Shown: positions 2,851 through 34,819 of the stretch, piece after piece
How the letters are laid out: every line of letters begins with the position of its first letter
Numbering within the stretch: position 1 is the first letter of the stretch
IMG/VR virus record: IMGVR_UViG_3300047554_000186
Span: 1 to 36,105 of that record
DNA length: 36,105 nt
Reading direction: 5' to 3' (one strand)
Source of the DNA: a virus
Notes under the pieces: model-generated
The model's database searches: none
Seen by the model: only the letters and a program-made list of their open reading frames with translations
Told to the model about the DNA's origin: nothing
Translations under genes and position numbers: made by a program

Positions 2851-3906
2851 TCAATATATTATATCATTAATGTCTGCTGCCTGGAACTCTACCTCTATTT
2901 GGTATGAGTTGTCTATGTTGATTAGCTCTATCACCAAGTCTCCAGCAGCATCAAGGTAGACATGGCTATTTAGTCCAGATGGATCATCTGTGACTGTTGG
3001 TATAAATTGATATCTTCTGAGTGGATATTTACTAAACACTTGTTCAGATGTGTTTTGTAGTGCAACCAAGTTGGCTCCACCATACACAGTCTCAATCTTG
3101 GAAAGATTTGATATTTGCTGATATTTTATATCTATACCACTCACAAGGTCATGCCTTGCTAAATTTAAAATTTCTGTACCGCCAATATCCTCAAACAACA
3201 AGTCTGTAATAATCTCTACTGGGAATTCATCTTCCTGTAACTGAATCAAATCTGGAGTAGCAGGCTTATAGGTCTTTACACTTTCTGCTTCTGAAGTAAC
3301 TCCTGGAGATGGAGACTCTGGGGTAGCAGAAACTACAGGATTTTCCGTAGCATCGACTGGGGACGTAGTTTGTGGCAGTGTAGAATTGTTACCAGTTTGT
3401 GGTTTAGTAGTTTTTGGTTTAGTAGTTTTTGGTTTTGTGGTCTTTGGTTTTGTAGTTTTTGGCTTTGTTGGTTTGGTGTTGACTGGATCGCTCTTTTTTA
3501 CTGGTTTCTTATATCCAGTTATTTTGTTAAGGTTAGCCTTTGCTTTTGACTGCTGATTTTGTGCCCTACCAAGAGTACGCATCCTATCTGATTTTTGCTG
3601 AGCAGTTAGCCCTGGAGCATTAGCAGAAGCTTTTAGTTGATCAACTTTTTTATTTGCAGCTATTACGCTTTGAGTTGCTTTATTTCTTTCTTTCTTTGCT
3701 GGAGAAGCTTGAAATGCAGCTCGTGATGCTGTTCTAGATCTGTCAGACTGTTGCTGTAAAGTTAGTTTTGGTGCAGAATATTTTTTATCATTAGCTGCTT
3801 TTGCTTCAGATGGGCCAGACTGCTTTACTACTGGTGCAGGCTTAGGCCCAGGAGATGGCTTTGGTGTTGCAGATGGTTTAATATTTGGCTTGATAGGTTT
3901 TGCCAT
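2851..3906 (-). CDS. Minor tail protein with Lys/Pro/Thr repeat linker
   Basis: A 351-residue protein with a split composition. Residues 1-230 are strongly basic and low in complexity: a Pro/Lys-rich start, two copies of a QQ(Q/K)SDR-(S/M)RT helical motif, then five TKPKT-type units encoded by 15-bp repeats and a Pro/Ser/Thr-rich stretch. Residues ~230-351 (EIITDLLFEDIGGTEILNLA, GIDIKYQQISNLSKI, YLDAAGDLVIELINID) form a compact domain familiar from actinobacterial phage tail-tip operons. GAGGT precedes the ATG, which overlaps the hub stop. It probably docks on the hub, with the basic arm extending along the tail tip or contacting cell-wall polyanions. The Pro-rich arm is a possible substrate of the phage hydroxylases, which is speculation. 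Confidence 0.75.
   Translation of the reverse strand: MAKPIKPNIKPSATPKPSPGPKPAPVVKQSGPSEAKAANDKKYSAPKLTLQQQSDRSRTASRAAFQASPAKKERNKATQSVIAANKKVDQLKASANAPGLTAQQKSDRMRTLGRAQNQQSKAKANLNKITGYKKPVKKSDPVNTKPTKPKTTKPKTTKPKTTKPKTTKPQTGNNSTLPQTTSPVDATENPVVSATPESPSPGVTSEAESVKTYKPATPDLIQLQEDEFPVEIITDLLFEDIGGTEILNLARHDLVSGIDIKYQQISNLSKIETVYGGANLVALQNTSEQVFSKYPLRRYQFIPTVTDDPSGLNSHVYLDAAGDLVIELINIDNSYQIEVEFQAADINDIIY
3400..3474 (-). repeat. 15-bp tandem repeat, five copies (KTTKP)
   Basis: Five 15-bp units encode KTTKP-type pentapeptides in the linker of the 351-residue minor tail protein. The two leftmost plus-strand copies are identical (TGGTTTAGTAGTTTT); the others differ at one to a few bases. Confidence 0.85.
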
Positions 3907-18272: not shown

Positions 18273-18943
18273 TATTCGTTACCTGCCTTTGCCATCCAGT
18301 TATACCCTGCAGAAAGTCCAACAGAACGACCAACCTTCATTCCAGTAACTAGGTATTTGTCATACAATGTTGGTGTCTGTAGGTATTTGTTAATTCCACT
18401 TCTTTCAAGGAAAGCTTGTGAGAAGTAGCTATTAAAGAATGTACTCATAGTTTGCTCAAATCCGCCTTGAACCTCTCGTCCACCTGGATTTGTGATTGTT
18501 ACTGGCTTCTTAGTAAATATAGTTTCTCCATCTACTTCAAAACGCAGGGCTTTCTTTCTTGGTGTAATAGTTATTGGTACACCATTTTCCATGATAGATG
18601 CTTTATTATAGAATGGTCTTGTTGCTCCAGCAGCAGCTATCTTAGACTGCGTTAGTGTTGAGTTGATGGATAGTCCACCATTTGCAACTGAGTATCCAAT
18701 TTCAAAAAGTCTAGCTGATGGATTTCCTGTCTGATTCCACTCATATACATGGTGTAGCATTTGGTGGTCTACTCTTGCCATTGAGTCAACAAAATCCTTT
18801 AGTGCCTCTACAGTCGATCTTCCAAGATTATTTAGAAATGCATTTTTGCCAGACTGAACACCGTCAAGGTATCCAATTGAATACTGAATAAGATTATTCA
18901 TCTCTCTATTGAACTGTTTATCGTCCCAAGTTATTGATAGCAT
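18272..18943 (-). CDS. Neck protein, HK97 gp10-like
   Basis: A 223-residue protein beginning MLSITWDDKQFNREMNNL. The pattern of an N-terminal long helix (LGRSTVEALKDFVDSMARVD), a His/Asn-rich loop (HHVYEWNQTGNPSARLFEI), a beta core (GVPITITPRKKALRFEVDGE) and a C-terminal helical segment is that of the gp10-like neck family that follows the stopper in siphoviruses. It is placed between stopper and tail terminator, with TAATG overlaps on both sides. It probably helps join the tail to the filled head. Confidence 0.7.
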   Translation of the reverse strand: MLSITWDDKQFNREMNNLIQYSIGYLDGVQSGKNAFLNNLGRSTVEALKDFVDSMARVDHQMLHHVYEWNQTGNPSARLFEIGYSVANGGLSINSTLTQSKIAAAGATRPFYNKASIMENGVPITITPRKKALRFEVDGETIFTKKPVTITNPGGREVQGGFEQTMSTFFNSYFSQAFLERSGINKYLQTPTLYDKYLVTGMKVGRSVGLSAGYNWMAKAGNE

Positions 18944-19392
18944 TAAACATCTACCCCCTGGTTTTCAGATCTACGCAATACAACCTTGTAGTATTCAACT
19001 GTTCCAAATGGACCAACAATAGGTTCTTGAGATGCAATTTCAAAAATGGTTGCTTTTCCATCACGCACACCAGAGGTCTCGATGTAGATGCTTGTTCCAA
19101 CAGTATCCTTGATATTGCTAATAACAATATTGGTTATTGCTTGACCATCTTGCTGAGCATTTACTCTAATGTCAGATTTAACTCTACCAACCAAAATTAG
19201 CTCTTTTGTAATATTTACATTTGGGATAACTTCTTCTTTTGCTGCACCTGCAGCTGATGCAAAGTAGCATGCGACAGTTTTATTATGAATCCAAGTTTTC
19301 TTTACATTGCCATAGGCACCCTGCTCAACAGTAGGATAGAAAACCTCTGCAGTCATTGGAAATACGAAATCTGTCTTTTCGCATACTACCAT
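18943..19392 (-). CDS. Head-tail stopper (head closure)
   Basis: A 149-residue, beta-rich protein. FVFPMTAEVFYPTVEQGAYG followed by NVKKTW is the typical opening of head-closure/stopper proteins. Later strands include ELILVGRVKSDIRV and the C-terminal EYYKVVLRRSEN. Stopper proteins seal the portal channel and join head to tail. Both ends overlap neighbours at TAATG junctions, so it is made as part of the connector-neck operon. The call rests on gene order (adaptor, stopper, neck, terminator, tail tube) as much as on sequence. Confidence 0.7.
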   Translation of the reverse strand: MVVCEKTDFVFPMTAEVFYPTVEQGAYGNVKKTWIHNKTVACYFASAAGAAKEEVIPNVNITKELILVGRVKSDIRVNAQQDGQAITNIVISNIKDTVGTSIYIETSGVRDGKATIFEIASQEPIVGPFGTVEYYKVVLRRSENQGVDV

Positions 19393-25022: not shown

Positions 25023-25399
25023 TATTCGTCTCCATAAAGCTCTAGAGTTTTCTTTGCAGCAATAACTGCACCAAGGTCATTCATAGATGGAATTAGACCA
25101 TTGTTCATTCTATCTACTTGCTCAGAGTACTCTTCGTCTGAGATCTTTCTCATGTTTGGATAGAATACGGCACGTCCTTCTGGCTGCCCCCAATACTTTG
25201 CTGCATCAGCTAGTTCTTTAATTTTTGCCTTGTCATCTTTAAGGCCTTCAATGGAGAGGGCATTTCCCTGGCCATCTGTAAATGCTTTGCCATTTGGCTT
25301 TGTCCATACATAGGTACCAAATAGAGAGAAGTTTTCTTCAATTACCTGAACCTTGGTTTCTCCAACCTGACCAGGAAAACGTGGTTTTTGCTTTTTCAT
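25022..25399 (-). CDS. Unknown small protein preceding portal
   Basis: A 125-residue charged protein (MKKQKPRFPGQ..; ends TLELYGDE) of unknown function. An in-frame GTG two codons earlier (25405) exists. I chose the ATG at 25399 because it lies seven bases after an extended -10 box (TGG TATACT) with no Shine-Dalgarno, as in leaderless mRNAs. Visible features: an aromatic patch FSLFGTYVWTKPNG, a central AAKYWGQPEGRAVFYPNMR and a C-terminal helix. The stop overlaps the portal ATG (TAATG), so the two are probably made together. It could be a head-assembly or packaging accessory protein; there is no direct evidence. Confidence 0.7.
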   Translation of the reverse strand: MKKQKPRFPGQVGETKVQVIEENFSLFGTYVWTKPNGKAFTDGQGNALSIEGLKDDKAKIKELADAAKYWGQPEGRAVFYPNMRKISDEEYSEQVDRMNNGLIPSMNDLGAVIAAKKTLELYGDE

Positions 25400-25406
25400 A
25401 ACCACT

Positions 25407-25415
25407 AGTATACCA
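25407..25415 (-). promoter_or_regulatory. Extended -10 promoter before pre-portal gene
   Basis: The minus strand reads TGG TATACT AGTGGTT ATG. The box ends seven bases before the ATG at 25399, and no Shine-Dalgarno is present, again the leaderless pattern. It lies across the 3' end of the LamG-like gene and would start the head operon. Confidence 0.5.
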
Positions 25416-25417
25416 TA

Positions 25418-28400
25418 TTAAACAGCATTAATAGTTGTAGTTTGCCTATTAGAGTTTGTTATTGCCCTATACTTTGACCTTAATAGCCTTAATATTGACT
25501 TGTCATCAATAATTATTCTGGTAGTTCCAACGTATGACTTGTATATATCGGATGGGTCAATACCGTAGAAATTTCTAGACGAAAGCACGAGCACTTCAAA
25601 CCACTTGAATATTCCGTCCCAATATCGCCAATCAAATTTGACTCTTCCAGACTCTTTTACTAGGAACCATGGTCTAACAGAGATATTTTGAACTTGCTGC
25701 AATCTTACAGAGTTATAGTGAGATATATTATTAATAAGCATTGGACCTGTTATTCTAATTGATCCACCATTATTAGAAAAATCTAGGTAGTTAGAAAAAC
25801 CTATACCTAATGATGCCCATTGCTTTATTGTCAGCACTGGGTCTTTAACAACTTTGCCATTAATATAATATCCAACACCATTTTCAAGCTGACCAGTTTT
25901 GTCATTGATAGCATATATTTTACCTCTTAGTCCGTCTGGGTGTGTTGCCTCAATATAGAATTTTAGGTGTGAGGTATTTGATATTATCTCAAAAATTTCT
26001 GTCGGGCTATATGGGAAAAAGTCATCATCATACATTGCAAACATTTGCATAGCAATCATTTTATGATTATTTGTCTTTTCACTATTTACTGGGATGTCTA
26101 TGCCTCGAACATTTTTATTATTAAATGCACCCTTTAGCCTTATGCCACTATTTTTAGTCAAATATAGGTATGGTGTGCTGCCCTTATATATTGAAAATGG
26201 ATTTGGAGACTTATAGTCATAATAAAAGCCATTTTCTGTAAATGGATAGATGTCAGTTCCGTATCTAGTTCCAATTGGCGTTGGAGTTTCATCATTAAGT
26301 GCAATTGACGAAAGCTCTAGTGTGCTGATTGCCAAAGGCTTATCAGATATATGCTCCGCTGACACAACTATCTCTGTAACCATCACAGTTTGTGCAAAAC
26401 TAACATTGGTAGGTGGATAGATTATCATTCCATCTACAATCTCATACTTGGTGTTTATCCATTCTTCCCCTGGACTTAACATTCCATCTTTTGGTGCCAT
26501 CGCAATATTTGTGTAGTATGAATCGTCCTCAACATCTTGAGAGATATCTTTAAAATATATATAGCTTTTTACAATTGATCCCGAAGTATCTAGTTTATAT
26601 GTTTGTCTAGAATTATTCTTTAAATCAGTGTAATCAATATATCCAGTATATAGGTGGTTATCTAGGTCACTATACTTTTTCTGAGATGGGGAAGAAAATT
26701 TAAGTGCTAAGTCTTGATAGCTCCACGAAGCATCGGTTTCTGTAACAGCAATCGATCTTCCAGGTGATGGATATCCAATATTAAACTGTATAAAATCAAG
26801 ATCGTAGTACTGGATACCCTTTGAATTAGTTACATTTTTTCCGAAATATGAAAGTGGTAGGGCAGACTTCCAAGAACCATTCATTACTCCATCTAGATAC
26901 ATAGTAGAACTATTTTCGTATGGTTTTATGGTATAGCTAGTGTTTGCATTATCGATAAGACCTATGCCTGCATATTCTGCAACCTGTCCACCATCCAGAA
27001 CAAATTCCCAAAATGTTGTACTATATAGTCCAGCATCCGCATCTGCAAGCATTGACTCAACCAGCTCTGCATCCCACACAATTCCATTTGGAGCAAAATA
27101 ATCCTCTATTTTCTTGGTAGCAAACTGATTGTTAAAAGATATAGAATATATGTTTCCAATAAAAGAGTCTGAAGAACCAGTACCGCCAACATAGAGTGCC
27201 AAAGAATCTTTTTTACTTAAAAATGTTGCTACAGCATTTCCAAAATAACTTGCAAATCTTTTTATGTGAAGACCTATAGAAAATTTTTCTCCTGGATAGT
27301 ATTGCTGAGTTGTTCCAAGAACTTCGGTTTGTCCAAGATACTTTAGCTTGTACTCAATGCCAGAACCAGACAACGACACTGATAAGTAGTCTCCAGTTGT
27401 TTTATCTCTTAGCTCTATGAGGGTCTGCCTTAGTTCTGTTGGTGCAGATATAGACTTAAAAGTTACATAAATAGACTCTACGCCGTCTTTTAAAATATTT
27501 AGATTTTCAAAATATCCATATGCATTATTTGGCAAAGATATAAATTTTGAATCTTCGTTTTGGATACTCTTACTATTTTTTAAAAACTCTGACTGCGTTT
27601 GTTCGGGGACCACCAGCTCCATACTCTTAAAGCTTGGAATCTTTAAGTAGTCTGTATCGCTTGACAAGTTGTTAGATATTCCGCTAGACCATGAACCAAT
27701 TTTTGGATAAGAATAGTTTGATGAATATTTGGCAAATTGGTAGTCAAAATATATGTTCTTTCCACCATATGCAACATTTAAAGTTTCTGGATTGTCTACC
27801 CCTTGCCCAAATATCCATCTTCTCTTAGCAATAGCATTTGAGATAACATATGTGTATATTGACACTGGTCCAATTTCAAATATATCGATTGAGTCATTAG
27901 AATAGAATCCCAGCCAGTCTTGCTCTTTTCCATTTAGCACTTCTTCTGGAAAAACAAGATCTGATCTATTTACCAATATCTGACCTACCTGCTCACCATT
28001 CAAAAGCATAACAATTCTGTCTGATGATATCGATATGTGCACCAACATTGGTCTATACCATTCAGACACATAGTGGGAAATTGAATAATCCCCCACCTTA
28101 AGCTTTAAGAATGGTCCATTAACATATATTCCATCAGAAGATGCGACTGGTCCAAATATCTTTGACTCAGAGTATCCAGATGGGCTTATCTTGATCCATG
28201 CCTCGATAGTGTAGTTCTTGTACTGACCAACTCTATTCATAAAACCCAAGCCAGGTATAACTATAGATGGACTAGATCCATTTGGATATATTGTCATCGA
28301 AGAGTCTGACCCATATACCATCGGCATACCAGAATTTCTTGCCTTTAGTTGATTGTCTGCGACAATTGCATATCCATCTTTAGTGGCTTCTGCTGATGCA

Positions 28401-29086: not shown

Positions 29087-29614
29087 TCATACTATACGTG
29101 TAAACCAGCGTGGAGTTGTATAACGAATTCCATCAGATATTGCTCTTACCCCATGCACGTAATCTGGATTGTCTGGAAAAGTTAAGAGGTCTCCTGGCTC
29201 TGGCTTGTGAGAAATTCCATATTCTGGGAAATAGATATCTCCACCAATATAATCATTATTTATATATATTAATGTTGCTATATCGTTTGGCTTGCTAGCA
29301 TCAAAATGCTCATGCATACCCCAGCCTGGCTCAAATCTTGCAATATGCGATTTTGTCTCATCATATTCATAGAACTTTTGACCATATGTATTTAGCACAA
29401 AATCATATACTTTTTTGCCCCACTCTGTTACTAGATTTTTCATAGCCAGTGTTTCTTCATCAGACTTTTTAAACACATTAACCCTAAACTCTTTTTCCCC
29501 ATTGCCAAATTCATCAAAAAATTCATCATTTTTTACAGAATACTCGTAAATTGCTTTAGCTATATCAGCTGGCATGAAGCCCTTAACATACTTAATATCA
29601 TCCGTCTTACTCAT
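29087..29614 (-). CDS. Prolyl-4-hydroxylase-like 2OG-Fe(II) oxygenase
   Basis: A 175-residue protein of the classical P4H-like 2OG-Fe(II) oxygenase fold. The metal site is visible: HEHFDA gives His103 and Asp105 (HxD), YVHGVRAI gives His154, and Arg164 in GIRYTTPRW lies exactly ten residues after the distal His, the position of the 2-oxoglutarate-binding Lys/Arg in this family. YINNDYIGGDIYFPEYG and PEPGDLLTFP are typical core strands. It probably hydroxylates a protein side chain (Pro, Lys or other) in the host cytoplasm using Fe(II), O2 and 2-oxoglutarate. It is coupled by ATGA to the 52-residue gene upstream. The three paralogues nearby are a different, HxH-type branch, so two families of oxygenase sit in one cassette. 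Confidence 0.87.
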   Translation of the reverse strand: MSKTDDIKYVKGFMPADIAKAIYEYSVKNDEFFDEFGNGEKEFRVNVFKKSDEETLAMKNLVTEWGKKVYDFVLNTYGQKFYEYDETKSHIARFEPGWGMHEHFDASKPNDIATLIYINNDYIGGDIYFPEYGISHKPEPGDLLTFPDNPDYVHGVRAISDGIRYTTPRWFTRIV

Positions 29615-29769
29615 TGAAACATTCCAACCTTATCTACATGTTTTGGCATATTTGATCCACCACAAGTTATACAGTCTAACCTAACCATACCAGTTACTGG
29701 ACAAGCGTTACCCTTAATGACCTTATGACCAGAAATAAAACATTTTATTCTTAATATCCAGTTTTTCAC
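29611..29769 (-). CDS. Small Cys-containing protein, 52 residues
   Basis: This short gene is easily missed. A GTG at 29769 overlaps the stop of oxygenase C (GTGA), with AAGG about 8-9 bases upstream, and the stop overlaps the next ATG (ATGA). This double coupling leaves no spare base between three genes and is the main support for it being real. The product begins MKNWILRIKCFISGHKVIKG and has Cys10, Cys23, Cys33 and Cys36, with CITCGG forming a CxxC knuckle. His15 lies between the first two cysteines. This could be a small zinc ribbon or metal-binding protein, but the spacing fits no family I know. A role linked to the flanking oxygenases (metal supply or substrate binding) is speculation. 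Confidence 0.65.
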   Translation of the reverse strand: MKNWILRIKCFISGHKVIKGNACPVTGMVRLDCITCGGSNMPKHVDKVGMFQ

Positions 29770-30413
29770 TTTTCAAGCCTTGTCCATGTTTGTGCATCCT
29801 CATCGCTAATATAGGCTCTTGGTGCAATATCATAAGCAATAGTTACTCTTGGACCATCGACTCTCCAGTTTCCCATGCCATGAGGATGACCAACTTCTGA
29901 AACAACTAAACGATTATTTTTATTTACATTTACTTTTATATTTTCTGGATTTTTAAATACTTGATACACTGTTACAGAAGGTTCTGCATTTACACAATAG
30001 TATCCATGAAACACTGGTGCTCCAACACCATTCATGTGTTCGTGCCACTTATCTTGATTATCAATAGGAGAGACATCCCACATATCTTCTTTAGCATTTT
30101 TGTTGAACCAGCCGTGCAGGTACCAATCTTCAGCATCATAATCTATTTCATAATAGATACATGCCTCTTTTAGGGCATCATGGATTGCATTTTTTAGCTT
30201 TTCAATTTGTGGGTTGCCCATCTCAAAAATATTGTAGTGTGAAAGAAAGGCGGTACCTGCTCCAGATGAGCTATCCTTGTATGCATCAAGCATGGATTTG
30301 TCTAGCTCTACTAGATTTCCAGAGACTAGTCTTTCATTCAAATCTAAAGTCCACGACAAGAGTGACTCTATGTCATTATCTATGTCACGAATAAAAAATT
30401 TATGATCCTTCAT
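29766..30413 (-). CDS. 2OG-Fe(II) oxygenase-like protein, paralogue C
   Basis: A 215-residue protein, third of the tandem set. It begins MKDHKFFIRDIDND and carries KWHEHMNGVGAPVFHGYY (His124, His126, His136), VNVNKNNR, SEVGHPH (His176, His178) and DGPRVTIAYD (Arg189). The distance from the second His of GHPH to the Arg is 11 residues in all three copies, matching the distal-His to 2OG-binding-residue spacing expected of this fold. It starts one base after paralogue B stops. Its own stop overlaps a GTG that opens a hidden 52-residue gene. Three divergent tandem copies suggest distinct substrates or a heteromeric enzyme; this is inference. Confidence 0.7.
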   Translation of the reverse strand: MKDHKFFIRDIDNDIESLLSWTLDLNERLVSGNLVELDKSMLDAYKDSSSGAGTAFLSHYNIFEMGNPQIEKLKNAIHDALKEACIYYEIDYDAEDWYLHGWFNKNAKEDMWDVSPIDNQDKWHEHMNGVGAPVFHGYYCVNAEPSVTVYQVFKNPENIKVNVNKNNRLVVSEVGHPHGMGNWRVDGPRVTIAYDIAPRAYISDEDAQTWTRLEK

Positions 30414-30414
30414 A

Positions 30415-31083
30415 CTATCCCAACTTTATCCAATGGCTTCCAACAAAATCATGATTAATAAAATCCTTGTTCTTTGGACTAATGTCATAGGCAATAGTAA
30501 TTCTTGGACCATCCCAAGACCAATTGTCAATTGCGTGTGGATGACCAGTTTCTGAAACTACAAGCCTATTGTTTTTATTAACATTTTCAAACAAATTGTT
30601 TCTATCTTTATTTATATGATAGTAGGTGGATGAAGGCTCTGCGTTCACACAGTAGTATCCGTGAAATACTGGAGCCCCTATGCCATGCATGTGATCGTGA
30701 AACCATTCTGGATGATCTAAAGGAGACTCTCCAGAGTAAACTGTACCATTTTCATTTACATTAAACCATCCGCAAATATGGTAATCAGCTTTGTCAAAGT
30801 CTATTCCATAGTAATCGCATGCTTCTTTTGTTGTGATGACTAAGCCATCGTAGAGCTCTTTAATAGCTGGATTGTCCCATGTAAAGATATTATAATAGTC
30901 TCCAAGCATTGTAACTAGGCTATCGCCACGTTCACGCTTTTCCTTAAAAACATCTTCTGGTGCACCAATGCCGTTTTCATATATCCACTTTCTCTTTTCT
31001 AGAAGATACTGTGTCAGGCTTTCCAAGTCATTATCTAAATAACGATCAAAGAACTTGTGCGGTGGCTTAGTCATTGCAATCAT
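30415..31083 (-). CDS. 2OG-Fe(II) oxygenase-like protein, paralogue B
   Basis: A 222-residue paralogue of its neighbours. It starts HKFFDRYLDNDLESL and keeps the family blocks FHDHMHGIGAPVFHGYY (His129, His131, His141), VNKNNR, SETGHPH (His181, His183) and DGPRITIAYD (Arg194). The ATG at 31083 overlaps the preceding stop as ATGA, pointing to translational coupling; an ATG three codons later (31074) is an alternative. It is closer to paralogue C than to A around the putative iron site (GAPVFHGYYCVNAEPS is shared). Function is inferred from the His/Arg pattern only: a non-haem iron, 2-oxoglutarate-dependent oxygenase with unknown substrate, possibly a virion or host protein. Confidence 0.7.
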   Translation of the reverse strand: MIAMTKPPHKFFDRYLDNDLESLTQYLLEKRKWIYENGIGAPEDVFKEKRERGDSLVTMLGDYYNIFTWDNPAIKELYDGLVITTKEACDYYGIDFDKADYHICGWFNVNENGTVYSGESPLDHPEWFHDHMHGIGAPVFHGYYCVNAEPSSTYYHINKDRNNLFENVNKNNRLVVSETGHPHAIDNWSWDGPRITIAYDISPKNKDFINHDFVGSHWIKLG

Positions 31084-31739
31084 CTAAGTGGAATCCAGTG
31101 CTGCTCTACTGCAGATCCTCCACGCTTTAGGTACTCTAAAGGTGTAACATCATATGCTACTGTAATTCTTGGACCATCCCAGTCCCAATCACCCATTGCA
31201 TGTGGATGTCCCATTTCAGACAAGATGGCACGATTATTCTTATTGACATTTTCTACCTCGTCATCGAACACGATATAGTGTGTAGAGGATGGTTCTGCAG
31301 CTACAGAATAGTACCCATGAAAATCTGGTGCACCTGGGCCACCGTGCTCATGCCAATTAAGTTTTCCATTGCCAGAGTGGTTAATATTAAACCATCCCTG
31401 AATCATAAACTTTTGTTCATCAAAGTCAAGCTCGTAATGTTCGCATGCCTCTCTTACCATATCTCCAACGGCTTTATATAATTCATAAATACCATCGATA
31501 TGGAACTGGAAAACGTTATACTGTCTCCACTTCATTGTTGAGATACTGTTAGAGTCTTTCCATGCCTCAAATGGGCTTACTGGTGTTACACCTGGAAGTT
31601 TTGCCTGTTCAATAAGTTCGTATCTAGCCTGAAGCTCTTCTGTTAGCTTTGCAAGGTCATTATCTAGATAGCGTTCAAAGAATTTGTGTCCCTGAGTGGT
31701 CTTGCTAATGCTTCTCAGAGGTGTTTGATCTTTATACAT
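31080..31739 (-). CDS. 2OG-Fe(II) oxygenase-like protein, paralogue A
   Basis: A 219-residue protein, first of three tandem paralogues. An upstream in-frame GTG at 31775 is possible, but ATG at 31739 has a GGAG six bases before it and matches the N-termini of the paralogues (HKFFERYLDND), so I chose it. Conserved blocks: WHEHGGPGAP (His130, His132), FHGYY (His141), NVNKNNR, SEMGHPH (His178, His180) and DGPRITVAYD (Arg191). This HxH..G-YY..H..RxT order resembles the putative 2OG-Fe(II) oxygenase family with HxH rather than HxD. Which histidines bind iron is unclear. Such enzymes hydroxylate proteins or small molecules using 2-oxoglutarate; the substrate here is unknown. The stop overlaps the next start (ATGA). 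Confidence 0.7.
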   Translation of the reverse strand: MYKDQTPLRSISKTTQGHKFFERYLDNDLAKLTEELQARYELIEQAKLPGVTPVSPFEAWKDSNSISTMKWRQYNVFQFHIDGIYELYKAVGDMVREACEHYELDFDEQKFMIQGWFNINHSGNGKLNWHEHGGPGAPDFHGYYSVAAEPSSTHYIVFDDEVENVNKNNRAILSEMGHPHAMGDWDWDGPRITVAYDVTPLEYLKRGGSAVEQHWIPLR

Positions 31740-31766
31740 CTCATACTCCGTTCTATGTATAAAACT

Positions 31767-31772
31767 ATTATA
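31767..31772 (-). promoter_or_regulatory. TATAAT box before oxygenase cassette
   Basis: On the minus strand GTGTATAATAG precedes the oxygenase A start (31739) by about 27 bases, with GGAG in between. It would start the oxygenase operon separately from the fibre genes. It overlaps the alternative GTG start at 31775. Confidence 0.35.
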
Positions 31773-31790
31773 CACTATAGGAGCTGTTTT

Positions 31791-32618
31791 TTATCTAAAC
31801 CCAAATACCCCGAAGAATCCGAAAACTCCAAATGGAATAAATCCGAACACTCCAAACGGTCCAAATCCAAATACTCCAAAGAAGCTAAATACGCTAAAAG
31901 GAACAAATCCAAATACTGAGAAGAACCCAAATACTGAGAAGAATCCAAATACTGAGAAGAATCCAAATACTGAGAAGAAGCCAAATACTGAGAATGGCAC
32001 AAAGGAAAATGTTGAAACTTGGTTAGATGCTGCTGAGGCAGCAGATCTACCATTTGCGTTATCAGCATATACCGTATATGTTTGAGAAGTTCCTTGCTCT
32101 TGGCTAATATCTATAGATGTTCCAGATGTATTTCCAGACTTTCCATCATCAGAAGTGATGTAATAATTAGTAATTGCTTTGCCACCATTGGCTGGTGCAG
32201 ACCAAGATACTGTATCATATGATGCACCGCTTGGAGATGACGCACTGACACTAGTAGGTGCAGCTGGAACGGTTGTTGCAGTAATAGAAACTGAAGATGA
32301 TGCAGCTGAAGATCCAGAAGCGTTAGATGCAGTCACAGAAATTGAATATCCAGTGTCAGACGCAAGTCCAGATACTGTGACTGGAGAAGAAGATCCAGAT
32401 GCAGTCATTGAAGAACCACCTGCGGTAGGTGTTGCTGTTACTGTATACGATGTTGCAGCTGGTGAGTTAGCAGGCAACTCAAAAGTTACTGTGGCAGCAC
32501 CGTCATTGTATGCTCTGTTAGTTCCAACATCTGTTGCACCTACGTTAACTGGTGCATGTGGCTCTAAAAAGTCATTTGACTGCTGAGAGTGTCTACCTGC
32601 TCTTTTACCTGCTGCCAT
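31791..32618 (-). CDS. Fibronectin-III protein with Phe-rich repeat tail
   Basis: A 275-residue protein in three parts. Residues 1-23 are a basic, polar leader (MAAGKRAGRHSQQSND). Residues ~24-115 and ~117-203 are two fibronectin type III domains (ATVTFELPAN..SYTVTATP..VSGLASDTGYSISVTASN; DTVSWSAPANGGKAITNYYI). Residues 204-275 are a low-complexity tail of FSVFGF, FGVFGF and [VGI]PFGVFGF units: 32 of 72 residues are Phe and the only charged residue is the final Arg. The DNA under the five FSVFGF units is an almost perfect 18-bp tandem repeat. The Shine-Dalgarno GAGGAATAGG precedes the ATG. FN3 domains in phage virions are usually surface or adhesion modules. The function of the aromatic tail is unknown (sticky adhesin, packing domain or host-envelope contact). 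There is no signal peptide. Confidence 0.85.
   Translation of the reverse strand: MAAGKRAGRHSQQSNDFLEPHAPVNVGATDVGTNRAYNDGAATVTFELPANSPAATSYTVTATPTAGGSSMTASGSSSPVTVSGLASDTGYSISVTASNASGSSAASSSVSITATTVPAAPTSVSASSPSGASYDTVSWSAPANGGKAITNYYITSDDGKSGNTSGTSIDISQEQGTSQTYTVYADNANGRSAASAASNQVSTFSFVPFSVFGFFSVFGFFSVFGFFSVFGFFSVFGFVPFSVFSFFGVFGFGPFGVFGFIPFGVFGFFGVFGFR
31906..31995 (-). repeat. 18-bp tandem repeat, five copies (FSVFGF)
   Basis: Five consecutive 18-bp units (plus-strand AATCCAAATACTGAGAAG with a few changes) encode FSVFGF hexapeptides in the FN3 protein tail. Near-identity at synonymous positions points to recent expansion by slippage or recombination. More diverged units continue to 31791. 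Confidence 0.9.
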
Positions 32619-34357: not shown

Positions 34358-34819
34358 TTAGTTAAAATTATCAGTTACAGATCCACCATCAAAGATGAGT
34401 GTAAACTCAGTTGATGATGGGCTACCGCCATCAATTCCACTAGACATAGGGCTTGCTGGTATTGAACCACCTTCACGGAATGTTGTTGTGATCAATCCAG
34501 TTCCACCCACAGATGTATCGTGAATGTGCTGTGTCAAATTGAGAGTATCATCAACATTTGCTACAGTTAGCCATCCATCAGTTTCATCATAGATGTTAAT
34601 TCTTTTTGTTGTGGTATCAAACCACATTTTACCTGCTGTTGGATTTTCAGGGGCAGTAGAGGCAACAGTAATGCCAGATGCGTTAGCATTAAGATATCCA
34701 CGTGTTACGACGTGTGTATCATCAGTTGGGTCAGCAGCAACTATTGGGCCACCGAAGACACCACTACCTGCTACCTGGATTCCGTTTTTTACCTTGAAAT
34801 CCTTGTTTACTGTTGCCAT
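34358..34819 (-). CDS. Small fibre-associated virion protein
   Basis: A 153-residue protein with a good Shine-Dalgarno (AAAAGGAGT) 8 bases before ATG. The start NKDFKVKNGIQVAGSG resembles the N-terminal segment of phage fibre and structural proteins. The segment APENPTAGKMWFDTTTKRI followed by NIYDETDGW is a short beta motif often seen in phage fibre proteins (a 'PxxGxxWFDT...L-x-Y' pattern). The C-terminus is Gly/Ser/Thr-rich and ends in a probable beta hairpin. It lies between two fibre genes, so a role as a fibre base, connector or small adhesin is inferred. There is no catalytic motif. Confidence 0.65.
   Translation of the reverse strand: MATVNKDFKVKNGIQVAGSGVFGGPIVAADPTDDTHVVTRGYLNANASGITVASTAPENPTAGKMWFDTTTKRINIYDETDGWLTVANVDDTLNLTQHIHDTSVGGTGLITTTFREGGSIPASPMSSGIDGGSPSSTEFTLIFDGGSVTDNFN

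What the first reader, a model, noticed from the sequence alone, without database searches (positions are those of the whole stretch)
31791..32004. Phe-rich hexapeptide tail on an FN3 virion protein
The last 72 residues of the 275-residue protein contain 32 Phe and a single charged residue (the final Arg), in units FSVFGF, FGVFGF and [VGI]PFGVFGF. It follows two ordinary fibronectin domains. Such an aromatic, uncharged, repetitive segment is not a normal coiled coil, collagen or transmembrane design. It might form a stacked beta/aromatic fibre, a sticky patch for host envelope, or a phase-separating FG-like domain (it contains many F-G pairs). The 18-bp repeats suggest copy number varies between relatives.
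Basis: partly seen in the sequence, partly recalled or inferred. Interest (0 to 1): 0.72.

Follow-up and report, generated by a model that had tools for sequence, protein, structure and literature searches.

The report
Matched aromatic tails on phage adhesins
A virus of freshwater-type actinobacteria ends one of its likely surface proteins in a long, uncharged, phenylalanine-packed tail; most relatives that could be checked carry the same private tail pattern on a second, unrelated cell-wall-binding protein, which suggests that the two proteins are joined or docked through their tails.

Summary
In detail: residues 204-275 hold 32 Phe and one charged residue, the final Arg. It follows two FN3 domains. 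The tail is no accident. All 54 distinct relatives read keep an aromatic, nearly uncharged C-terminal tail, with synonymous changes far exceeding amino-acid changes, although the unit differs by lineage: FSVFGF, FSPFGVFGF, FGA, FFPP, YNFYN. New finding: the phages mostly carry a second tailed protein, usually a PASTA (peptidoglycan-binding type) protein several kb away. Its tail unit and extreme C-terminus (FGFR, Hint domain, Cys-rich end, FNFAPWG) match those of the FN3 protein in the same genome (3-mer cosine 0.76 within, 0.37 between; partial Mantel r=0.79, p=0.0002). Shared codons are no more alike than composition predicts, so recent gene conversion does not explain it. The window record ends 2.6 kb before this gene; a 98.8% identical contig has it. 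WhiB genes indicate actinobacterial hosts. Best explanation: a C-terminal aromatic assembly module that joins or docks two wall-binding adhesins. Virion location and self-association are inferred, not shown. No description was found in the papers searched.

The parts
31791..32618 (-). Gene of the 275-aa protein: N-terminal peptide, two FN3 domains, aromatic tail
32559..32618 (-). Conserved basic N-terminal peptide MAAGKRAGRHSQQSNDFLEP (residues 1-20), a candidate docking peptide (inferred)
   Evidence: G8, L18, P20 invariant and K5, S11, N15, D16 nearly invariant in 23 relatives
32274..32555 (-). FN3 domain 1 (residues about 22-115)
   Evidence: Pfam PF00041 E=9e-12; AF2 pLDDT about 89-98; Foldseek
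32010..32264 (-). FN3 domain 2 (residues about 119-203)
   Evidence: AF2 pLDDT mostly above 85; Foldseek aligns about 200 columns to tandem FN3 pairs; no separate Pfam match
31794..32009 (-). Aromatic tail (residues 204-275): 32 Phe, terminal Arg the only charge
   Evidence: AF2 pLDDT <50 for nearly all of it when modelled alone
31906..31994 (-). Five 18-bp FSVFGF repeats
   Evidence: Tandem Repeats Finder, 4.9 copies, 95% match; codons
32639..34294 (-). Upstream tail-fibre-like protein with Mtd_N domain, a conserved neighbour
   Evidence: Pfam Mtd_N E=2e-15; PHROG tail fibre hits; synteny
34358..34819 (-). Small conserved neighbour of the tail-fibre block (cluster 4)
   Evidence: synteny in 60 loci
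29766..31775 (-). Three tandem paralogues (231, 222, 215 aa) with conserved HxH...H...R; oxygenase-like by motif only
   Evidence: no Pfam hit; no support from hhalign against true 2OG oxygenases
29087..29614 (-). 2OG-Fe(II) oxygenase (PF13640), member of a conserved downstream array
   Evidence: E=7.7e-6, 27.2 bits, cut-off 27; array in relatives

Best explanation
The Phe-rich stretch is the C-terminal assembly module of one of a pair of adhesin-like phage proteins, the (FN3)2 protein and a PASTA protein encoded a few kb away. The folded N-terminal domains would face the host cell wall: PASTA towards peptidoglycan, FN3 towards an unknown ligand. The aromatic, uncharged, low-complexity tails would stick to each other, like with like, so that both adhesins are held in one structure on the virion. 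Matching unit sequence would be needed for the tails to pack, which would keep the two tails of one phage alike. The module ends either in a single K/R or in a cap (Hint, Cys-rich). The cap may keep the sticky tail soluble, or be removed by autoprocessing, before assembly. Shown: tail presence, amino-acid conservation, matched tails and caps beyond shared ancestry, no recent DNA homogenisation, actinobacterial host signal. Inferred: virion location, self-association, ligand, role of the caps.
For: All 54 distinct relatives read keep an aromatic tail; over 197 distinct tails aromatic residues are 46% and charged residues 0.5%. Purifying selection: L048/L052 tail 13 synonymous and 0 amino-acid changes; L003/L018 5 and 0; L037/L056 dN 0.06, dS 0.81. 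The partner PASTA protein is over Pfam's cut-off and folds like PknB PASTA, 1.6 A over 69 columns. Matched unit: 14 pairs, 0.758 within versus 0.367 between genomes, none of 100,000 permutations as high; extreme C-terminus matched in 18 pairs, 0.664 versus 0.225 for the last 12 residues, likewise none. Partial Mantel r=0.79, p=0.0002, given FN3 and PASTA divergence. Codon identity at shared residues 0.488 versus 0.484 expected. Matching ends: FGFR/FGFR, RFVGGCPPRC/RFSTGCPPRC, FNFAPWG/FNFAPWG, CCGGACSSPGCFDGGGC/CCGSGCSDPGCFDGGSC. In G018 the two tailed proteins are tandem FN3 paralogues sharing the YNFYN unit. Further pairs on other scaffolds: L134, L149, L156.
Against: In G010, G017, G019, G024 and G013 the PASTA protein lacks an aromatic tail although the FN3 protein keeps one, so the FN3 tail does not always need that partner. 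G053 matches at the C-terminus but poorly in the unit (0.25). Own partner is the single best match in only 6 of 14 (tail) and 10 of 18 (last 12 residues) cases, because related genomes share similar tails. AF2 gives the isolated tail no structure. Virion presence is unproven. Hint caps pair by genome in G007 but by scaffold in others, so occasional module transfer between the two genes is likely.
Confidence: 0.42

Rival explanations
1. Common dock: both tails bind the same third virion protein (for example a tail-fibre or baseplate protein) rather than each other. The unit matches within a genome because the dock is the same.
For: Accounts for the within-genome match and for genomes where only the FN3 protein is tailed. 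Conserved tail-fibre-like genes flank the gene.
Against: No docking protein was found; whether another protein covaries with the tail was not tested. A highly repetitive ligand of 25-114 residues is unusual for a docking peptide.
Confidence: 0.25
2. Host-surface patch: the tails bind the host envelope (lipid, wall polymer or a host protein), and the unit tracks the host.
For: Both scaffolds look like wall or surface binders; one target per host would give one unit per genome. WhiB suggests actinobacterial hosts.
Against: Unit chemistry ranges from hydrophobic FSVFGF to polar YNFYN, hard to reconcile with lipid insertion. The extreme C-terminus and cap match too, which a sticky patch does not need.
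Confidence: 0.15
3. Modified tail: neighbouring 2OG-Fe(II) oxygenases hydroxylate the tails (for example Pro in FFPP tails), and the modification is what matters, on top of or instead of tail-tail contact.
For: PF13640-type genes within 5.5 kb downstream rise with tail proline content, rho 0.73 over 48 loci: 0-2 below 20% Pro, 2-6 above 30%. The Pro-rich state needs about 4 changes on the FN3 tree (3-5 in bootstraps), with L062 (5 genes) against its sister L032 (none).
Against: The tail end and the array are physically linked and could move together; only 2 changes are forced by well-supported branches; FGA-tailed phages and L032 have none of these genes.
Confidence: 0.1
4. No protein-level function: replication slippage and recombination between two repeat loci keep the tails alike.
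For: 18-bp and 24-bp repeats are present; array length varies; Hint caps of G007 group by genome.
Against: Codons at shared residues are as different as composition predicts; strong excess of synonymous over amino-acid change; aromatic, uncharged composition kept across unrelated units.
Confidence: 0.05

Closest known systems
FG-nucleoporin and FUS-like aromatic low-complexity domains
   Same: Aromatic stickers with small or polar spacers, nearly no charge inside, many F-G pairs, one lineage YN-rich; AF2 shows no fold alone. From general knowledge, such domains self-associate.
   Different: About 46% aromatic, far denser than FG repeats as I know them; short; on phage proteins; unit matched between two proteins of one genome. 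No homology is claimed.
Shared C-terminal chaperone or assembly domains of phage fibres (for example Peptidase_S74), from general knowledge
   Same: One C-terminal module reused on different adhesin scaffolds, in some cases with a self-processing type of domain at the very end.
   Different: Here the module is low-complexity aromatic; the cap is Hint, Cys-rich or absent; no S74 domain was reported in the Pfam scans made.
Hint / bacterial intein-like / Hedgehog autoprocessing domains (cap in relatives only)
   Same: Fold confirmed: Foldseek to 6tyy, 1at0 and 2lwy, TM-score 0.74-0.77 by target length; profile hit to gp41-1 intein E=1e-7. One class keeps Cys1, TxxH and terminal HN.
   Different: Sits at the C-terminus after an aromatic tail; several classes have lost the TxxH His or the terminal HN. 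The window protein has no such cap.
PASTA-domain proteins (PknB-type)
   Same: Partner protein has one PASTA domain over Pfam cut-off.
   Different: No kinase; one domain (sometimes two) followed by the aromatic tail.

Membership tests
Fibronectin type III | Pfam PF00041 match over cut-off and FN3 fold | tested here: met
   (45.5 bits, cut-off 25); for tandem FN3
FG-nucleoporin-like phase-separating domain | Many FG pairs in an uncharged segment without a stable fold | tested here: inconclusive
   Sequence feature present and AF2 pLDDT <50, but AF2 without partners is weak evidence of disorder
FG-nucleoporin-like phase-separating domain | Self-association or phase separation | not testable with these tools
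   Needs protein in vitro
Transmembrane or lipid anchor | Hydrophobic in all members | tested here: not met
   YNFYN tails have GRAVY -0.83, FFPP tails mean 0.59
Collagen-like fibre | Gly at every third residue | tested here: not met
   Units FSVFGF, FFPP and YNFYN lack it; only the FGA lineage has Gly every third residue
PASTA protein (partner) | PF03793 over cut-off | tested here: met
   (27.0 bits, cut-off 23.2); over cut-off in 30 of 60 records
Hint autoprocessing protein (cap of relatives) | Hint fold | tested here: met
   Foldseek; profile search; Pfam Hint models below cut-off
Hint autoprocessing protein (cap of relatives) | Catalytic set Cys1, TxxH, terminal HN | tested here: inconclusive
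   Intact in the CIDGET/CISGDT class only; partial in others
Hint autoprocessing protein (cap of relatives) | Cleavage activity | not testable with these tools
   Biochemistry needed
Phage virion protein | Present in virions | not testable with these tools
   Only gene position between tail-fibre-like genes and the portal region

The most novel reading that the evidence does not exclude
Phages of actinobacteria use lineage-specific aromatic low-complexity tails as matched molecular velcro: two unrelated wall-binding adhesins carry the same private unit and end so that they recognise each other and assemble into one adhesive, with compatibility set by the repeat unit rather than by a folded interface.
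Probability: 0.3. Interest if true: 0.9.

Novelty: new variant of a known kind. Interest (0 to 1): 0.74.

Why it matters
If tail matching sets which proteins assemble together, this is a specificity code written in low-complexity sequence and read out in a natural viral structure. Sequence-specific recognition by aromatic low-complexity segments is an open question in condensate biology, and here evolution supplies several natural versions in matched pairs to test. It also gives a sequence marker for adhesins of phages infecting abundant actinobacteria that are hard to culture.

Tried and rejected
Named phage records: no tblastn match to the FN3 protein at 1e-5 or to the PASTA protein at 0.01. 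Genome contigs: two MAG hits only. PDB: no sequence like the tail. Papers: no hit for the motif strings or for the combinations FN3/Phe-rich/phage, Hint/PASTA/tail fibre or virion/FG repeats; one query failed on an illegal character. The freshwater phage survey PMC6802176 mentions whiB but not PASTA, fibronectin or oxygenase. The inteins of phiCbK (PMC3556154) lie in TerL and ribonucleotide reductase, so are unrelated. Frameshift junk: only L033 of 54 relatives shows a tail that runs out of frame. Recent gene conversion: not supported by codons. Calling the three 215-231 aa neighbours 2OG oxygenases: motif only, unsupported by profile comparison. My first reading of pairs missed minus-strand loci and was redone.

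Full report
THE OBSERVATION. The gene at 32618-31791 (-) encodes 275 residues. Residues 204-275 (31794-32009) contain 32 Phe and no charged residue except the final Arg. Ten hexamers of the FSVFGF/FGVFGF type are present; the five tandem FSVFGF copies form an 18-bp array (31906-31994) and differ only at synonymous positions (for example Gly as GGC, GGA or GGG). Pfam sees one FN3 domain. AlphaFold2 models two domains with pLDDT mostly above 90, and Foldseek aligns both to tandem FN3 pairs. The tail is modelled with pLDDT below 50 almost throughout.

WHERE IT LIES. The window is a 36,105-bp viral fragment. Portal and tape measure resemble those of large Streptomyces siphophages (46% and 30% identity over the matched parts). 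WhiB genes, found in only one of 14 control genomes (Corynebacterium), occur over cut-off in 12 of 27 related records, which points to actinobacterial hosts. The window is 98.8% identical over 35,980 bp to a 110.9-kb contig, G001. In relatives the gene order is steady: tail-fibre-like genes, this gene, a run of oxygenase and oxygenase-like genes, then a large protein and the portal.

THE TAIL IS A CONSERVED CLASS WITH CHANGING UNITS. A scan of viral contigs found 221 relatives; 79 loci were kept and 54 distinct proteins read. All have FN3 domains (a few appear to carry an extra one) and then an aromatic tail of 25-114 residues; one row (L060) was mis-segmented and its tail is 33 residues. The units differ: FSVFGF, FSPFGVFGF, FGA, FFPP, FTPFGF, YNFYN, FFAPPG. 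Over 197 distinct tails on all scaffolds, aromatic residues make up 45.8% and charged residues 0.48%. Between close relatives, amino-acid change in the tail is rare and synonymous change common: L048/L052 0 against 13, L003/L018 0 against 5, L037/L056 dN 0.06 and dS 0.81. Tail dS is inflated where different repeat copies are aligned, so equal-length pairs are the safest evidence. One relative (L033) runs out of frame near its tail end.

CAPS. By my reading, 23 of the 54 relatives add a C-terminal domain of about 140-200 residues. It has weak matches to Pfam Hint and intein models below cut-off, a profile hit to the gp41-1 intein (E=1e-7), and a clear Hint fold in the AlphaFold2 model of a PASTA-tail-Hint protein (6tyy Hedgehog, TM-score 0.77 by target length). 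One class keeps Cys1, TxxH and terminal HN; others have lost one or more. Other relatives end in Cys-rich segments. The window protein has no cap; it simply ends FGFR.

THE SECOND PROTEIN. Pattern scans for the tail units found them on other scaffolds: PASTA proteins, multi-FN3 proteins, and proteins with Trp/Cys-rich repeats that I recognise as thrombospondin-like only by eye. Fourteen related records were then pulled in 20-kb pieces and scanned. Seven hold exactly two such proteins (G001, G002, G008, G018, G029, G035, G036), six hold one, and G013 has none over the threshold because its short FGA tail scores low. In G001 the second one is a PASTA protein at 18553-19032, 6.1 kb from the FN3 gene at 25135-25962 and 2.6 kb beyond the end of the window. 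Its tail is FSVFNF/FSVFGF and it too ends FGFR. G018 instead has two tandem FN3 paralogues, both with YNFYN tails ending FYWFSR.

MATCHING WITHIN A GENOME. For 14 FN3-PASTA pairs, tail 3-mer similarity is 0.758 within and 0.367 between genomes, with none of 100,000 permutations as high. The last 12 residues match 0.664 against 0.225 in 18 pairs, again with none as high. Distances between FN3 tails and between PASTA tails correlate at r=0.79 after accounting for divergence of the FN3 and PASTA domains themselves (partial Mantel p=0.0002, 17 genomes). The own partner beats that of the nearest relative in 14 of 17. Examples: G035 shares the D variants FSVFDF and FNVFDF and the rare APAFGFF; G020 shares SPPFR; G052 shares GCPPRC; G053 and G056 share FNFAPWG; G029 shares a long Cys-rich end. 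At residues shared by the two tails, codons are identical in 48.8% of cases against 48.4% expected from composition, so recent DNA homogenisation is not the cause. Whole-module transfer still happens at times, because the Hint caps of G007 group by genome. Similar matched pairs occur on other scaffolds in L134, L149 and L156.

LIMITS OF THE MATCH. In G010, G013, G017, G019 and G024 a PASTA protein is present without an aromatic tail, while the FN3 protein keeps one. In G017 and G019 the Hint cap is nevertheless shared. The FN3 tail therefore has a role even without a tailed PASTA partner, such as self-association or docking to something else. Many records are fragments, so absence of a partner is weak evidence. 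Choice of pairs was guided in part by the tail search, which may favour matched cases; the PASTA family scan was added to soften this.

MECHANISM. The best-supported reading is a C-terminal module that assembles or docks adhesin-like proteins. Because unit chemistry changes so much while aromatic density and lack of charge persist, and because two proteins in one genome change together, I favour direct like-with-like contact between tails (0.42), then a common dock (0.25), then a host-surface target (0.15), modification by the neighbouring oxygenases (0.10), and slippage or conversion alone (0.05). A membrane anchor is unlikely because the YNFYN tails are polar. The number of PF13640-type oxygenase genes rises with tail proline content (rho 0.73, n=48), and the Pro-rich state needs about four changes on the FN3 tree. 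Linkage and shared ancestry weaken this, so it is kept as a lead.

NOVELTY. Neither Pfam nor PHROGs gave a match in the tail, the PDB has none, named phages have no relative at the thresholds used, and no paper in the searched library holds the motif strings. The library lacks most subscription papers. Aromatic low-complexity domains and shared fibre-assembly domains are known kinds; a unit-matched pair of tails on two phage adhesins would be a new variant, and a new principle if the matching is shown to set specificity.

Noticed in passing
window 29087-31775 and relatives L001-L079: Runs of oxygenase or oxygenase-like genes follow the FN3 gene; PF13640-type gene number rises with tail proline content.
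   Followed up: partly
window 29766-31775: Three tandem paralogues with conserved HxH...H...R and the block FHGYY.V.AEPS.T.Y; no Pfam match, the 231-aa one matches PHROG 2696 of unknown function.
   Followed up: partly
window 2851-3906, array at 3394-3468: 351-aa protein with a (TKPKT)n-type Lys/Thr/Pro repeat; the only break in collinearity with G001 lies in this gene at 3766-3897.
   Followed up: no
L023 5995-7679 (G018): Two tandem FN3 paralogues with diverged FN3 domains but the same YNFYN tail and FYWFSR end.
   Followed up: partly
L059, L041, L046, L070 C-termini: Cys-rich, knottin-like C-terminal ends after FFPP tails; in G029 both tailed proteins share one.
   Followed up: partly
L149, L207, L269, L311: Scaffolds with GPWGPWGEC...TRTRT repeats resembling thrombospondin type 1 by eye, before aromatic tails; no Pfam thrombospondin hit was seen for the two scanned.
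   Followed up: no
L008 8796-10826 and other relatives: A B12-dependent (class II) ribonucleotide reductase gene sits inside the tail region in one clade.
   Followed up: no
L054 11250-12023: A glutathione-peroxidase-like gene within the oxygenase array of FFPP phages.
   Followed up: no
L081: FN3 relative on a 3.2-kb contig binned as a Chitinophagaceae MAG, probably a mis-binned phage fragment.
   Followed up: no
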